A DNA stretch of 64,000 nt. It comes from Sutcliffiella sp. FSL R7-0096 (GTDB lineage Bacteria; Bacillota; Bacilli; Bacillales; Bacillaceae_I). The stretch lies in NCBI RefSeq assembly GCF_038595065.1, contig NZ_CP152003.1, positions 2,336,001-2,400,000 of the forward strand. Reading direction: 5' to 3'. The translations under genes were made by a program, and so were the position numbers. The notes beneath the pieces were generated by a model that saw nothing but the letters and a program-made list of their open reading frames with translations, was not told where the DNA came from and searched no databases. Positions 1,788 through 58,012 of the stretch are shown here, one piece after another; the first letter of the stretch is position 1, and each line of letters begins with the position of its first letter.

Positions 1788-1808
1788 AGAGCAGCACCCA
1801 GCTGCTCT
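1788..1808 (-). terminator. tcyP terminator, distal hairpin copy with U-tract
   Basis: Stem AGAGCAGC / GCTGCTCT followed on the minus strand by seven T residues. A second copy of the same hairpin without a U-tract lies at 2028-2050, and repeat copy A sits between them. Confidence 0.75.
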
Positions 1809-2027
1809 CAGACTGTTGACCAATCCAATTTATTTTTAAAAATGCATATAATTGTTGATTTGCGTTTCAGACGCTTCGCTTTCCGCGGGCGGTCCGGGAG
1901 CCTCCTCGGGCTACGCCCTGCGGGGTCTCCCATGTCCCTTCCTCCCGCAGGAGTCTGCGCGTCTTCCACTACGATCAACATGGTTACTGCATACCTTGAA
2001 GATTAGAATAAATTTATCTACACACTG
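1809..2027. mobile_element. Terminator-associated repeat, copy A
   Basis: This 219-bp element begins CAGACTGTTGACCAAT and ends TCTACACACTG. Its ends form imperfect terminal inverted repeats. The GC-rich core (CTTTCCGCGGGCGGTCC ... CCCGCAGGAGTC) is shared with copies B, C, D and F. It is flanked by two copies of the tcyP terminator hairpin (1788-1808 and 2028-2050), which have diverged by a 2-bp insertion, so the insertion is not recent. It encodes no convincing protein. Confidence 0.8.
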
Positions 2028-2050
2028 AGAGCACAGCACCCAGCTGCTCT
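2028..2050 (-). terminator. tcyP terminator, proximal hairpin copy without U-tract
   Basis: Stem AGAGCA(CA)GC / GCTGCTCT just downstream of the tcyP stop codon. It lacks the U-tract, which was displaced beyond repeat copy A. Confidence 0.65.
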
Positions 2051-4646: not shown

Positions 4647-5873
4647 CTATCTCTTGAAATTCTTATTGGGAAACTCTTTTTTACGTGCTTTTTCTTTTCG
4701 CGCTTTGAGAATGTTTTTTTGGCGCTCTTCCTCATAATCGTCACGATCTGGAATACTGACACCCTTAAATACTATCTTTTCTATAGGCGTGCCTATCCCT
4801 TTTTCTATCATATGAAGAAAATCCACATCTCTTGGAGCATAAAGTGTATAAGCTTCTCCAGTTCCTGACGCACGTCCAGTACGCCCGGTACGATGGATAT
4901 AAGTTTCTAAATCCTGGGGGATATCATAATTATAAACATGTGTAACGCCTTCTACATCAAGGCCACGGGCAGCCACATCTGTGGCGACCAGGTATTGTAG
5001 CTTGGCTTCTCTGAACCATTTCATCGCTCTGTTTCGTTTGGATTGAGGAATGTCACCGTGCAATGCTTCACATTCCACTCCTTGTTGTTTGAGGACTTCC
5101 GTTAGTTTTTGTACCCTCGCCTTCGTCCGGCAGAAGATAATAGCTAGATAAGGATTTTGCTCTTTGATCAAGTGGATCATTGTACCCTCTTTACGGCGGT
5201 CAGTCGTTTCAACAGCATAATGGTTTATTGTATCTACTGTCACTTGCTTTTCTTTTATTTCAATATATTTTGGTTCCTTCATATATTTCTTCGCGAGTGC
5301 GTGTATTTGATCCGGTATGGTGGCGGAGAACAGCATTGTCTGACGGGAAGAAAACGTTTCTGCTGTAATGGTGTCAATATCGGGAAGAAATCCCATCAAT
5401 AGCATCTGATCGGCTTCATCAATAACAAGCATGGAGATGGTGGAAAGATCTATGGTTCCTCTTCTCACATGATCCAATAATCGACCTGGTGTTGCCACGA
5501 CGATATGTTGTGCACCTTTCAGCTTTTTTAGTTGTGATTCTACATCTTGACCACCGTAAACGGCGAGAACATTCAGGTCATCTATGTTTTCCTTCAGTTT
5601 TTTTATTTCTTTTGTAATTTGATGGGCCAGCTCCCGTGTCGGTGTCAGGATCAATGCCTGTGTGTCGGGATTATTCACATCCACTTTTTCTAATACGGGC
5701 AATACAAAAGCTAGTGTCTTCCCTGTTCCTGTTTGTGCCTGGGCGATTACATCATGGCCTTGAAGCACTGAAGGGATGGTTTTTTCTTGGATCGGGGTTG
5801 GAGTATGTATTCCTAGGGATTTTAATGTATGATTTATCCCTTTACGCACTCCTAATTGTATAAAATCAGTCAC
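4647..5873 (-). CDS. DEAD-box RNA helicase
   Basis: All superfamily 2 motifs are present: the Q motif (GIHTPTPIQ), AQTGTGKT (I), PTRELA (Ia), TPGRLLDH (Ib), DEAD (II), SATI (III), FCRTKARV (IV), VATDVAARGLDV (V) and HRTGRTGR (VI). The basic tail KARKEKARKKEFPNKNFKR would aid RNA binding. Such enzymes unwind short RNA duplexes during ribosome assembly or mRNA turnover. I place the start at GTG 5873 (MTDFIQLGVRKG); the open frame extends upstream to TTG 5918, which lacks a ribosome binding site. It resembles CshA-type more than YfmL-type helicases but I do not assign a symbol. Confidence 0.9.
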   Translation of the reverse strand: MTDFIQLGVRKGINHTLKSLGIHTPTPIQEKTIPSVLQGHDVIAQAQTGTGKTLAFVLPVLEKVDVNNPDTQALILTPTRELAHQITKEIKKLKENIDDLNVLAVYGGQDVESQLKKLKGAQHIVVATPGRLLDHVRRGTIDLSTISMLVIDEADQMLLMGFLPDIDTITAETFSSRQTMLFSATIPDQIHALAKKYMKEPKYIEIKEKQVTVDTINHYAVETTDRRKEGTMIHLIKEQNPYLAIIFCRTKARVQKLTEVLKQQGVECEALHGDIPQSKRNRAMKWFREAKLQYLVATDVAARGLDVEGVTHVYNYDIPQDLETYIHRTGRTGRASGTGEAYTLYAPRDVDFLHMIEKGIGTPIEKIVFKGVSIPDRDDYEEERQKNILKARKEKARKKEFPNKNFKR

Positions 5874-8671: not shown

Positions 8672-8753
8672 ACCCGTTTTTCAAAAATCAAACTAAAAAA
8701 TGAGAAAAAAGTTGAAACTAAGCCAATCTCCCCATTTCCCTCCAATAAAAAAA

Positions 8754-8773
8754 CCAGATCTATGAAGATCCGG
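8754..8773 (-). terminator. Distal hairpin copy with U-tract, TPR gene terminator
   Basis: CCAGATCT / AGATCCGG stem followed on the minus strand by T residues; duplicate of the hairpin at 9138-9161 across repeat copy B. Confidence 0.65.
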
Positions 8774-8774
8774 G

Positions 8775-9137
8775 CAGACTGTTGACAAACTATATACTAG
8801 TTAGGTTATCTGTTGGAAGAGTTGATTTTCGTTACAGGAGCTTCGCTTTCCGCGGGCAGTCCGGAAGCCTCCTCGGCTACGCCCTGCGGGGTCTCAAGAT
8901 TGTCGCTATCCCCCCGCAGGAGTCTTCGCCTATTGCTCCAATCAACAGCTGGAAACCATAAAAAAGATAAGTTTTTGGGTTTTTCAATGGCCTTAGCTAC
9001 GCCCTGCGGAGTATTCCATGTCCTTTCTTCCCCCAGGACAAGGAATACTTCGACAGCAATTTATTTTCGAGGAGTCTTCGCTCCTTCCACTGCAATCAAC
9101 TTAAGATTTTCATTATTTTAAGCTTTGTCTACACACT
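8775..9137. mobile_element. Terminator-associated repeat, copy B (enlarged dimer form)
   Basis: Ends CAGACTGTTGACAAAC and CTTTGTCTACACACT match the family. At about 363 bp it is longer than other copies because it contains one full core (8820-8945, GTTGAT ... ATCAAC) and a second partial core (about 8990-9102, again ending ATCAAC). The junction region is shared with copy E, so the dimer arrangement existed before both copies spread or exchanged sequence. Flanked by hairpins 8754-8773 and 9138-9161. Confidence 0.75.
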
Positions 9138-9161
9138 AACCGGATCTAAGTAGATCCGGTT
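9138..9161 (-). terminator. Proximal hairpin copy, TPR gene terminator
   Basis: AACCGGATCT / AGATCCGGTT stem 18 bp past the TPR gene stop; the U-tract lies beyond copy B. Confidence 0.65.
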
Positions 9162-24294: not shown

Positions 24295-24321
24295 AGCCTA
24301 TTTCTCCGTAAGAAATAGGCT
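24295..24321 (-). terminator. Distal hairpin copy with U-tract, dioxygenase gene terminator
   Basis: AGCCTATTTCT / AGAAATAGGCT with 5-nt loop and minus-strand U-tract. Identical over 28 bp to the copy at 24532-24558. Confidence 0.85.
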
Positions 24322-24322
24322 G

Positions 24323-24531
24323 CAGTGTGTAGACAAAGCTTAAAATAATGAAATACTCTAGTTGATCGCAGTGGAAGGAGCGAAGACTCCTGCGGGAGGA
24401 AAGGACATGGAAGACCCCGCAGGGCGTAGCCCGAGGAGGCTTCCGGACTGCCCGCGGAAAGCGAAGCTCCTGGAACGAAGATCAACTCTTCCAACAGATA
24501 ACTAATTAGTTTATAGTTTGTCAACAGTCTG
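24323..24531. mobile_element. Terminator-associated repeat, copy C
   Basis: A 209-bp element running CAGTGTGTAGACAAAG ... TTTGTCAACAGTCTG, inverted relative to the gene it follows when compared with copies A, B and D. The flanking terminator hairpins are identical, so this is one of the youngest insertions. The core folds by GATCGCAG... style outer arms and CCTGCGGG / CCCGCAGG as in copy F. Confidence 0.85.
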
Positions 24532-24558
24532 AGCCTATTTCTCCGTAAGAAATAGGCT
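24532..24558 (-). terminator. Proximal hairpin copy, dioxygenase gene terminator
   Basis: Exact duplicate of the hairpin at 24295-24321, 10 bp past the gene stop, without U-tract. Confidence 0.8.
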
Positions 24559-24567
24559 GTAAAATAG

Positions 24568-25548
24568 TTATTCTTTTTTAAATTCTTTTGTACTTCTTAC
24601 AGTATCAATCGGTCTGACAAGCTTCTCGATTTGTTCGCGCTTTGGTTCGAGGAACGGAGGTAAAGAAAGCTTCTCCCCTAACGTTTCATAAGGCTCATCT
24701 CCCATGAATCCGGGACCGTCCGTTGCAAACTCGAATAAAATCTGCGGTGCAACCCTTGCATATAACGACTCAAAGAAATAGCGATCTACATGTCCGGATG
24801 TATTAAAACCGAACCCCTTCAATCTCGCATCCCACTCATCTATAACAGAGCGGTCTTTCACCCGGAATGCAGCATGATGTACAGTACCAAATCCTTGCTG
24901 GGCTTGAGGGAGTGTATCATTATGTTCCACAACCAGTCGTGCCCCGTTGCCCCCTTCTCCTACCTCAAATAAATGAGTATCACCGTCTTGAGCAATTGCT
25001 TTGAAAAGTAAAACCTTCTCTAATACTTCCTTAAAGAAATCAAAATTGGCAACACGAATGTGGAGAGGCCCTAATCCAGTGATTGCATATTCTAAAGGTA
25101 TCGGCCCCTTTTGCCATGGTGTGCCCGGCTCCACCCCATTGTTGTTTTCATCTGAAACCAGTTGGTACTGCTGTTCGTCAAAGTCAACGAAAGAAAGGGT
25201 TTTTGTCCCAAATTGATCTTTGACACCATCGTGCTTTACATTTAGTCGGTCGAAACGATCCACCCAATATGCTAAAGCATTATCTGATGGAACTCTGAAG
25301 CCGGTTCTGAAAATCTCATTTGTTCCATGGCTTCCTTTTGGAATACCAGGGAAATCAAAAAATGTCATGTCCGTTCCGGGGCTCCCCGTATCATCCGCAA
25401 AAAACAGATGATATGTTTGGATGTCGTCCTGATTTACTGTCTTCTTAACAAGTCTCATCCCTAAAACATAGGTGAAAAATTCATAGTTTTTTTCCGCGCT
25501 GCTGGTTATCGCTGTTACGTGATGGATCCCTTTTAAACCGTTTATCAT
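24568..25548 (-). CDS. Ring-cleaving dioxygenase of the VOC superfamily (MhqO-like)
   Basis: 326 residues with two VOC modules. LKGIHHVTAITSSAEKNYEF gives the first metal-binding His, FGTVHHAAFRV the second, and FFESLYARVAP the Glu ligand of the extradiol-dioxygenase fold. The family (MhqA/MhqO of B. subtilis) protects against quinones and catechols. The palindrome at 25588-25607 is very like the MhqR operator, which supports this role. GGGGAGAACCATAT precedes ATG 25548. Confidence 0.88.
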   Translation of the reverse strand: MINGLKGIHHVTAITSSAEKNYEFFTYVLGMRLVKKTVNQDDIQTYHLFFADDTGSPGTDMTFFDFPGIPKGSHGTNEIFRTGFRVPSDNALAYWVDRFDRLNVKHDGVKDQFGTKTLSFVDFDEQQYQLVSDENNNGVEPGTPWQKGPIPLEYAITGLGPLHIRVANFDFFKEVLEKVLLFKAIAQDGDTHLFEVGEGGNGARLVVEHNDTLPQAQQGFGTVHHAAFRVKDRSVIDEWDARLKGFGFNTSGHVDRYFFESLYARVAPQILFEFATDGPGFMGDEPYETLGEKLSLPPFLEPKREQIEKLVRPIDTVRSTKEFKKE

Positions 25549-35137: not shown

Positions 35138-35164
35138 AGCGATAAGTCTAATTGACTTATCGCT
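35138..35164 (-). terminator. Distal hairpin copy with U-tract, speD terminator
   Basis: AGCGATAAGTC / GACTTATCGCT with 5-nt loop, minus-strand U-tract. A degraded duplicate starts at 35423. Confidence 0.8.
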
Positions 35165-35165
35165 A

Positions 35166-35421
35166 CAGTGTGTTAGACAATCCCTAATAAACTTTAGGTT
35201 TGCATTTACTTGTTGATCTTCGTTCCAGGCGCTACGCTTACCTGTTGGGTCTCAAGATTGTCGCTATCCCCCTGCTGGAGTCTTCGCCTATTGCTCCAAT
35301 CAACAGCTAGAAATTGTAATAAATAAGTTATTCGGTTTTTCAGTGGCCTTTACTACGCCCTGGGCACCTTCCACTACGATCAACTTGAAAACGTTATGAA
35401 ATTTGCTATGTCTACATATTG
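35166..35421. mobile_element. Terminator-associated repeat, copy E (decayed dimer form)
   Basis: Both ends resemble the CAGTGTGTAGACAAAG type (CAGTGTGTTAGACAA on the left, TATGTCTACATATTG on the right). The interior carries the same core-junction-core arrangement as copy B but with large losses in the GC-rich parts. It is the oldest-looking copy. The right hairpin (35423 on) no longer folds well. Confidence 0.65.
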
Positions 35422-35422
35422 A

Positions 35423-35455
35423 AGCGATAAGTCTTACTGACTTACTGTTACTTCA
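35423..35455 (-). terminator. Proximal, degraded hairpin copy after speD
   Basis: AGCGATAAGTC is intact but the other arm has become GACTTACTGTTACTT, so the stem is broken. Confidence 0.5.
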
Positions 35456-42706: not shown

Positions 42707-42780
42707 GCTGAACACTCCTCCCCCAATTATTATCCTTTTTTATACTGTATTGCTGATTTCCTAAAACATTCAAAAAAAAA

Positions 42781-42800
42781 GAGGTGCTCCAGTAGCACCT
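42781..42800 (-). terminator. Distal hairpin copy with U-tract, helicase gene terminator
   Basis: AGGTGCT / AGCACCT with loop CCAGT and a nine-residue minus-strand U-tract; exact duplicate at 43018-43038. Confidence 0.85.
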
Positions 42801-42801
42801 G

Positions 42802-43016
42802 CTAGACTGTTGACAAACTCTAATCATCTTTATTTTTGCATTTTCTTGTTGTTCTTCGTTACAGGCGCTTCGCTTTCCAGCGGGCGGTCCGTAAGCCTCC
42901 TCACTCCGTTGCGGGGTCTTACCTGTCCCTTCCTCCCGCGGGAGTCTTCGCGCCTTCCACTACGACCAACATGGGTATTGCATATTTCTTTGAGATTATA
43001 CTTTGTTTACACACTG
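42802..43016. mobile_element. Terminator-associated repeat, copy D
   Basis: A 215-bp element from AGACTGTTGACAAACT to CTTTGTTTACACACTG, same orientation to its gene as copy A. The core is slightly shortened (CCTCACTCCGTTGCGGGG in place of the CTACGCCCTGCGGGG block), keeping the inner stem partly by compensating changes. Flanked by identical 20-bp hairpins. Confidence 0.8.
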
Positions 43017-43017
43017 A

Positions 43018-43038
43018 GAGGTGCTCCAGTAGCACCTC
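43018..43038 (-). terminator. Proximal hairpin copy, helicase gene terminator
   Basis: GAGGTGCT / AGCACCTC, 16 bp past the helicase stop, without a U-tract. Confidence 0.8.
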
Positions 43039-43054
43039 CTTACATAATAAGCTT

Positions 43055-57747: not shown

Positions 57748-57774
57748 AAGCATAGAGATTAGGTCTCTATGCTT
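57748..57774. terminator. Left hairpin copy of the araC/dat bidirectional terminator
   Basis: AAGCATAGAGA / TCTCTATGCTT with loop TTAGG; identical 27-bp copy at 57986-58012. Confidence 0.85.
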
Positions 57775-57985
57775 CAGTGTGTAGACTAAGTCATTTGAAG
57801 TTATAGTTTCCCCGTTGATCGCAGTGAAAGGAGCGTAGACTCCTGCGGGAGGAAAGGACATGGAAGACCCCGCAGGGCGTAGCCCGAGGAGGCTTCCGGA
57901 CTGCCCGCGGAAAGCGAAGCTCCTGTAACGGAGATCAACTGTTATAGGTAATAACCAAACTAATCTATAGTTTGTCAACAGTCTG
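57775..57985. mobile_element. Terminator-associated repeat, copy F (best-preserved)
   Basis: A 211-bp element running CAGTGTGTAGACTAAG ... TTTGTCAACAGTCTG. Its fold can be read directly: outer arms GTTGATC (57814) / GATCAAC (57933), AGGAGC (57829) / GCTCCT (57919), inner hairpins CCTGCGGG (57842) / CCCGCAGG (57869) and CTTCCG (57893) / CGGAAAG (57908). It lies between convergent araC-type and dat genes with identical terminator hairpins on both sides. No protein is encoded. Confidence 0.87.
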
Positions 57986-58012
57986 AAGCATAGAGATTAG
58001 GTCTCTATGCTT
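57986..58012. terminator. Right hairpin copy of the araC/dat terminator
   Basis: Exact copy of 57748-57774, with TTTTT following on the plus strand. The last codons and stop of dat (58005 on) lie inside it. Confidence 0.85.

What the first reader, a model, noticed from the sequence alone, without database searches (positions are those of the whole stretch)
24295..24558. Repeat inserts between terminator stem and U-tract and duplicates the hairpin
Copy C (24323-24531) is flanked by two identical 27-28 bp terminator hairpins; only the gene-distal one keeps the U-tract. The same arrangement occurs at all six copies (1.8, 8.8, 24.3, 35.2, 42.8 and 57.8 kb), each time with that locus's own hairpin. 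This implies targeting of terminators with a target duplication of 20-28 bp, far longer than most transposons make, or a mechanism acting on the transcript end. Imperfect terminal repeats CAGTGTGTAGACAAAG / CAGACTGTTGACAAAC support a mobile unit; no transposase is in the window.
Basis: seen in the sequence. Interest (0 to 1): 0.87.

Follow-up and report, generated by a model that had tools for sequence, protein, structure and literature searches.

The report
Mobile repeat that duplicates terminator hairpins
A small jumping DNA repeat lands in the hairpin that ends a gene's transcript and copies that whole hairpin on landing, so the length of DNA it duplicates appears to be set by the shape of the target instead of being fixed as in most transposons.

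Summary
A 209-bp repeat (24323-24531) lies between two 28-bp copies of a terminator hairpin. Of 59 copies with both ends, 49 have a clear target duplication of 15-34 bp; 47 of those 49 fold as one hairpin. At copy C's site, 10 same-genus relatives match on both flanks and, by eye, carry one hairpin and no element; one of them also holds a filled allele, in the opposite orientation, with a 32-bp hairpin duplicated.

The missing enzyme exists in relatives. IS1182-family DDE insertion sequences have the same ends. In 62 of 73 with candidate ends on both sides, an entire hairpin of 19-42 bp is duplicated; all 62 fold as one hairpin. The element's GC-rich core is found in 31 of 32 long versions of these ISs and 0 of 30 short ones. 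So the element is a non-autonomous IS1182 derivative; no intact helper was found in this genome.

Best mechanism: the transposase recognises the hairpin as extruded DNA and joins the element to both 5' feet of the stem. A 2017 paper drew this as a hypothetical pathway; I found no earlier example in the papers I could search. New variant of a known kind.

The parts
24295..24322 (.). Copy C: left (gene-distal) duplicate of the terminator hairpin; T-tract on the minus strand lies to its left
24323..24531 (+). Copy C: 209-bp non-autonomous IS1182-type element; ends CAGTGTGTAGACAAAG / GTTTGTCAACAGTCTG
24361..24486 (+). GC-rich core of the element (element positions 39-164), also found inside long autonomous IS1182 elements
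24532..24559 (.). Copy C: right (gene-proximal) duplicate of the hairpin, without its T-tract
24568..25548 (-). Open frame whose terminator was the target
1788..1808 (.). 1.8-kb copy: left hairpin
1809..2027 (-). 1.8-kb copy of the element (219 bp)
2028..2050 (.). 1.8-kb copy: right hairpin
8753..8774 (.). 8.8-kb copy: left hairpin
8775..9138 (-). 8.8-kb copy, 364 bp, longer than the usual 210 bp
9139..9160 (.). 8.8-kb copy: right hairpin
35138..35164 (.). 35.2-kb copy: left hairpin
35166..35421 (-). 35.2-kb degenerate copy; its CAG end at 35166 has an extra base, so it is not among the 59. It contains a stretch like the end of another IS1182 subfamily
35422..35453 (.). 35.2-kb copy: degenerate right hairpin
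42780..42802 (.). 42.8-kb copy: left hairpin
42803..43016 (-). 42.8-kb copy of the element (214 bp)
43017..43039 (.). 42.8-kb copy: right hairpin
57748..57774 (.). 57.8-kb copy: left hairpin, 27 bp, exact duplicate
57775..57985 (+). 57.8-kb copy of the element (211 bp)
57986..58012 (.). 57.8-kb copy: right hairpin, 27 bp, exact duplicate

Best explanation
The repeat is a non-autonomous, MITE-like derivative of an IS1182-family DDE insertion sequence: the ends and GC-rich core are kept and there is no transposase gene. An IS1182 transposase, not found intact in this genome, moved it in trans. The inferred mechanism: the target hairpin is extruded from the DNA (a cruciform at an intrinsic terminator); the transposase joins the two 3' ends of the element to the two 5' feet of the stem, one per strand, mostly 1-4 nt outside the outermost G:C pair; repair copies the single-stranded hairpin on both sides. 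The whole hairpin is therefore duplicated, whatever its length, and the element ends up between two stem-loops, of which only the outer one keeps the U-tract. Shown: ends, family, target, duplication, empty sites. Inferred: that the recognised form is a cruciform, and the strand chemistry.
For: 59 copies with both ends in this genome: 49 with a duplication, 47 of 49 folding as one hairpin with its closing pair within 3 nt of the duplication's edges. Full-length ISs with the same kind of ends in the genus: 6 of 6 with both ends read stand between two copies of a hairpin, one of them (L049) imperfectly. Of 80 loci kept from 463 relatives, 73 gave candidates for both ends and 62 of these have a duplication of 19-42 bp, 60 without a mismatch; 62 of 62 fold as one hairpin (58 within 1 nt of the edge), against 101 of 12400 random stretches of the same lengths and loci under the 1-nt criterion. 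The length varies widely (mean 25.3, sd 4.1), but the edge lies 1-4 nt outside the outermost G:C pair in 57 of 62; it starts with A in 50 and ends with T in 55 of 62. Transposase: NF033551 IS1182, E 6e-142 to 7e-144, with PF13751 and DUF772, 4 of 4. Core in 31 of 32 long ISs and 0 of 30 short ones. One-hairpin empty sites in 10 of 10 relatives matched on both flanks, and an empty plus a filled allele in G003. Tandem hairpin-element-hairpin-element-hairpin arrays at four loci of G003, as expected if each insertion leaves another target.
Against: No intact helper found in this genome, so the pairing of element and helper rests on relatives. Stems pair beyond the duplication by at least one base pair in 49 of 62 ISs, and in the folded empty site the duplication's length correlates only moderately with the span of the outermost enclosing pair (r 0.44 for ISs, 0.48 for elements), so the cut is near the foot of the stem and not always exactly at it. 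Of 73 ISs, 11 lack a readable duplication; most look truncated, rearranged or recombined or had a misplaced end call, but that is my reading. 10 of 59 element copies have no clear duplication by score.
Confidence: 0.85

Rival explanations
1. The transposase recognises the palindrome as ordinary duplex DNA, or as a single-stranded hairpin at the replication fork, and cuts symmetrically about the dyad; no cruciform is needed.
For: The duplication is centred on a dyad. Many stems continue beyond its edges, and the lengths cluster around 25 bp.
Against: The distance between the two joints varies from 19 to 42 bp while the offset from the G:C stem stays 1-4 nt in 57 of 62, which is hard for a dimer on linear duplex. 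Element strand shows no clear bias by chromosome half (16+/19- and 14+/10- of 59, assuming the origin at coordinate 1), against a fork-bound single strand.
Confidence: 0.2
2. A mechanism acting on the transcript end, through RNA or through RNA polymerase paused at the terminator.
For: 41 of 42 copies lie at the 3' ends of open frames, and U-tract-like runs flank 57 of 62 IS targets and 37 of 41 element targets.
Against: The related ISs encode a DDE transposase. Copies with one frame end nearby stand 18 to 11 in the two orientations, and one terminator carries the element in opposite orientations in two species. The duplication is symmetric about the hairpin.
Confidence: 0.04
3. Random insertion, with only harmless insertions at terminators surviving selection.
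For: Sites between genes are the least harmful.
Against: Selection does not explain why the duplication's edges follow the hairpin's (58 of 62 within 1 nt against 101 of 12400), nor why so few copies lack a hairpin (51 of 59 have one by score on both sides).
Confidence: 0.02
4. The flanking hairpins belong to the element and were carried in, or were made by recombination, rather than copied from the target.
For: Hairpins flank nearly every copy.
Against: Each locus has its own hairpin, and at copy C's site relatives carry the matching hairpin once, without the element.
Confidence: 0.01

Closest known systems
IS1272 / TnSha1 of staphylococci (IS1182 family); PMC4923244 and PMC5678879
   Same: Same transposase family by those papers; targets hairpins with little primary sequence preference and in both orientations, with 5 of 7 TnSha1 sites confirmed as terminators (passages and first part of each discussion read).
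   Different: IS1272 removes part or all of the stem-loop and makes no duplication; here the whole stem-loop is duplicated. Pathway b of Fig. 13 in PMC5678879 (legend read) draws this outcome as a possibility.
IS1182 family in general (NF033551)
   Same: The enzyme of the autonomous relatives passes the family cut-off. Both papers cite Siguier et al. 2015 for palindromic targets of some members; that review was not seen.
   Different: I saw no published set of insertions showing whole-hairpin duplication, or this MITE, in the searches listed.
MITEs and repeats of Bacilli such as bcr1 (recalled, not tested)
   Same: Short, many copies, non-coding, with terminal repeats.
   Different: Those are recalled to have short fixed target duplications; here 15-34 bp set by the hairpin.
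Group IIC introns (recalled)
   Same: Recalled to insert at terminator hairpins, after the stem.
   Different: Recalled to make no target duplication; here there is a duplication and the relatives carry a DDE transposase.

Membership tests
IS1182 family (autonomous relatives) | Transposase of model NF033551 / PF13751 | tested here: met
   4 of 4 proteins above the NCBIfam cut-off (474-480 bits against 270); 4 of 4 with PF13751 and DUF772
IS1182 family (autonomous relatives) | Conserved DDE-type residues | tested here: inconclusive
   D150, D277 and E404 are among the columns invariant in 32 of 32 aligned transposases; that these are the triad is my assignment
IS1182-derived MITE | Ends shared with an autonomous IS | tested here: met
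   14 of 16 positions at each end against L053; right-end 15-mer TTTGTCAACAGTCTG identical in L106 and L107
IS1182-derived MITE | Same target and same kind of duplication as the autonomous IS | tested here: met
IS1182-derived MITE | Internal sequence derived from the autonomous IS | tested here: met
   core in 31 of 32 long ISs; the direction of transfer is not proven
IS1182-derived MITE | Helper transposase in the same genome | tested here: not met
   PF13751: 0 matches; protein search: one match, 36% identity over 55 residues
IS1272-type stem-loop replacement | Target stem-loop removed, no duplication | tested here: not met
   49 of 59 copies and 62 of 73 ISs show duplication
Group IIC intron | Intron RNA fold and no target duplication | tested here: not met
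   duplication present; Rfam gathering search of the window found only 6S RNA

The most novel reading that the evidence does not exclude
A branch of IS1182 transposases reads DNA shape: it cuts the two strands at the 5' feet of an extruded hairpin, so the target duplication has no set length and equals the hairpin. Because each insertion doubles its own target, one terminator can grow into a tandem array. Within one family, cutting at the 5' feet, the 3' feet (IS1272) or the loop would give duplication of the stem-loop, its deletion, or duplication of the loop.
Probability: 0.65. Interest if true: 0.8.

Novelty: new variant of a known kind. Interest (0 to 1): 0.72.

Why it matters
Most DDE transposases are thought to make a fixed stagger (general knowledge). 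Here 111 insertions (49 elements, 62 ISs) give duplications of 15-42 bp that follow the target's hairpin, which argues that the enzyme measures a DNA structure. It supplies natural examples for a pathway drawn only as a possibility in PMC5678879, and names candidates for assay: 12 copies of one length (1738 bp) in Bacillus sp. OV166, 12 of 12 with mismatch-free duplications, which suggests recent activity. It could become a readout of where hairpins extrude in living cells. It also suggests how a repeat reaches dozens of gene ends with little damage: a complete terminator is left as a rule, moved about 240 bp downstream.

Tried and rejected
Long element in G003 (ends 1985 bp apart) as the autonomous form: rejected, the insert is an IS110-type transposase gene inside one copy.

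A transposase between matching ends in the own genome: none seen. Taking the nearest right end for each left end, all 60 pairs within 6 kb are 115-826 bp apart.

Other replicons: no match to the element in the phage collection; 13 plasmid records match part of it, none over 80%. Five IMG/VR contigs hold the 16-base end exactly; apart from a motif scan they were not examined.

Fixed-length duplication: rejected. Exact coincidence of the duplication with the outermost base pair of the folded empty site: not supported as first formulated (equal in 1 of 62 ISs and 2 of 49 elements; r 0.44 and 0.48), because A- and T-tracts and longer flanks pair further out; the offset from the outermost G:C pair is what varies little.

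Loop-targeting by a second IS1182 subfamily (ends GAGGCCACTGAAAAA): 8-9 bp duplications at five G014 copies and L055, suggestive only.

Structure prediction: busy four times. Sequence search for solved relatives: two matches, both weak and unrelated (E 0.18 and 0.27).

Literature: ten searches, of which four found no paper. Of the papers listed I opened three. PMC5678879 and PMC4923244 bear on it (passages, and part 1 of 2 of each discussion). PMC3196728 (passages) does not. The other listed papers were seen as listings only. The FEMS review looked up is not held.

Full report
What is there. Copy C is a 209-bp element (24323-24531) between two identical 28-bp hairpins. The hairpin is the terminator of the minus-strand frame 24568-25548, and its T-tract survives only beyond the left, gene-distal copy. 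The five other window copies have the same arrangement, with small differences between the paired hairpins and a degenerate right hairpin at 35.2 kb.

Census. The window lies in a 4.9-Mb single-contig genome. A DNA search returned 40 copies, with only 40 of 253 candidates scored. Pattern searches with up to two mismatches gave 70 left and 73 right ends; the reversed patterns gave 1 and 3. Pairing each left end with its nearest right end within 6 kb gave 60 pairs; one pair, 826 bp apart, was dropped before the counts, leaving 59. The 35.2-kb window copy is not among them, as one end has an extra base. A duplication scored at least 12 in 49 of 59. A hairpin abutted the right junction in 54, the left in 56 and both in 51 of 59; at 5000 random window positions the rate is 15.4%. 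By eye the rest are mostly diverged hairpins. Of the 49 duplications, 30 are exact, and 47 fold as one hairpin closing within 3 nt of both edges (43 within 1 nt). Of 23 unpaired ends, 22 were fetched and 15 abut a hairpin. In a same-genus genome (G003), 10 of 10 copies chosen from its lists of ends have hairpins on both sides by eye.

Terminators. For the 42 of 59 copies with 900 bp of flank on both sides, 41 have an open frame of at least 80 codons ending towards the element within 160 bp: 18 on the left only, 11 on the right only, 12 on both. Random window positions give 713 of 2000. The split shows no strong orientation rule.

Empty sites. Only copy C's site was tested. All 15 same-genus relatives match the query somewhere. 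In 10 of them (G001, G002, G003, G004, G007, G008, G009, G012, G013, G014) both flanks match next to each other; by eye all 10 have one hairpin and no element there, apart from one allele of G003. In the other five only the side of the terminated gene matches at that place; four of these (G005, G006, G010, G015) show one hairpin and no element by eye, and G011 (80% complete) shows no clear hairpin. In the nearest, G013, the two flank matches overlap by 29 bp, the single hairpin. G003 holds two versions of the region: one contig has the single hairpin, the other has an element in the opposite orientation to the window's, with a 32-bp hairpin on both sides. I read this as two independent hits of one terminator. 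G003 is listed with 4% contamination, so the two versions may come from two strains; the comparison of empty and filled is not affected.

The enzyme. PF13751 finds nothing in the own genome but hits 7 of 16 genomes of the genus. Several of these loci have matching ends: L053 in G001 (1513 bp, 448-aa frame), L049 in G003 (decayed frame), and four copies of a second type in G010 (frame in two pieces). All six with both ends read stand between two copies of a hairpin, L049 imperfectly. The four proteins tested belong to the IS1182 family. The own genome gave only a short remnant, 36% identical over 55 residues.

The wider family. A scan of genome contigs with the L053 transposase found 463 relatives; the best 80 loci were kept, from genera that I know as Bacillales (names; taxonomy not looked up). 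7 of 80 lack one end or its flank in the fetched DNA. Of the other 73, 62 have a duplication of at least 15 bp (19-42 bp), 60 of them without mismatch, and all 62 fold as one hairpin closing within 3 nt of the edges (58 within 1 nt). Stretches of the same lengths drawn from the same loci meet the 1-nt criterion in 101 of 12400. The 62 are not all independent species: 12 copies are from Bacillus sp. OV166, and Bacillus massiliglaciei and Cytobacillus oceanisediminis also contribute several; the hairpins differ from copy to copy. Of the 11 without a duplication, L108 is cut by a contig end, L147 has hairpins on both sides but no recognisable left end, L169 and L173 have different hairpins on the two sides (as after recombination between copies), and L170 runs into what looks like rRNA sequence; in the others one end was misplaced or missing (my reading).

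The cutting rule. The duplication varies from 19 to 42 bp (mean 25.3, sd 4.1), yet its edge lies 1-4 nt outside the outermost G:C pair of the stem in 57 of 62 ISs and 38 of 41 window-type elements (those of the 49 with at most one mismatch). It begins with A in 50 of 62 and 36 of 41, and ends with T in 55 of 62 and 37 of 41. Stems often pair further in the A/T tracts beyond the edge, and the span of the outermost pair in the folded empty site is a poor predictor. I read this as cleavage near the foot of the stably extruded part of the hairpin, on both strands. In a cruciform the two feet are close together whatever the arm length; on linear duplex they are 19-42 bp apart. That is the main argument for a structural target, and it is an inference.

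Origin of the element. Its GC-rich core scores well above shuffled cores in 31 of the 62 ISs: 31 of 32 that are at least 1680 bp long and 0 of 30 shorter ones. Where BLAST gave its place (20 of 73 ISs), it lies between the left end and the transposase gene, antisense to it, in 19, and near the right end in one (L145). The element is thus ends plus core without the gene. That it arose by loss of the gene from such an IS is the simplest reading; the core also occurs without intact ends in other genomes.

Consequences. Each insertion leaves the target whole on both sides, so the same place can be hit again. In G003, three loci fetched because two left ends lay close together (L041, L042, L043) and one fetched for its long end-to-end distance (L044) read hairpin-element-hairpin-element-hairpin; L045, also fetched for its length, is one element with an internal insertion or duplication by its BLAST pieces. 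Host transcripts presumably run on through the element to the distal, complete terminator (not tested).

Relation to known work. IS1272 and TnSha1, placed in the same family, hit hairpins, several of them terminators, but remove stem-loop sequence and make no duplication (PMC4923244 and PMC5678879, passages and part 1 of each discussion). Fig. 13 of PMC5678879 (legend) sets out three possible outcomes; pathway b, attack at the 5' feet, would duplicate the stem-loop. What is described here behaves like pathway b. Both papers cite a 2015 review for palindromic targets of some IS1182 members, which I could not read, and ISfinder notes may hold more. My statement that I found no set of examples in print rests on the ten searches listed and covers only that library.

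Verdict. A real, genome-wide and mechanistically informative feature: a new variant within a known family.

Noticed in passing
L040:1013-2997 (G003): An IS110-type transposase gene (PF02371, PF01548) is inserted inside one copy of the repeat, in a frame that looks broken.
   Followed up: partly
L051, L056, L059, L063, L067 (G014); L052 (G013); L055 (G006): A second IS1182 subfamily (ends GAGGCCACTGAAAAA) inserts in small dyads of the repeat's own core or in a terminator; 8-9 bp duplications were read at the five G014 copies and L055, which may be duplication of a loop.
   Followed up: partly
L258-L267 (G001, G002, G004, G008, G009, G012, G014): The GC-rich core (bounded by GTTGAT...ATCAAC) occurs at 87-91% identity without intact ends, at least two of ten (L258, L265) with what look like decayed right ends beside a hairpin; the core is better kept than the ends, which suggests separate spread or selection.
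   Followed up: partly
L098 (Peribacillus sp. R9-11 plasmid pA): A core copy lies beside a gene annotated as IS1182 family transposase, with an IS-end-like palindrome and a hairpin beyond it.
   Followed up: partly
window:24323-24531: The whole element folds as one long imperfect RNA hairpin (-71.1 kcal/mol, z -3.95, 0 of 200 shuffles); no Rfam family matched it.
   Followed up: no
L156, L101, L125 left ends: The left end of these autonomous ISs is itself a hairpin followed by a T-run, so the IS carries a terminator-like structure pointing at its own transposase gene.
   Followed up: no
L083 (G000:C1:1215359-1215526): The only trace of an IS1182 transposase that the protein search found in the own genome is a short remnant next to a core copy.
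   Followed up: partly
window:4106-4294: 6S RNA gene (RF00013, 87.7 bits, minus strand).
   Followed up: no
A1 columns C326, C352, C355, C361: Four invariant cysteines between the supposed second D and the E of the transposase suggest a zinc-binding insertion.
   Followed up: no
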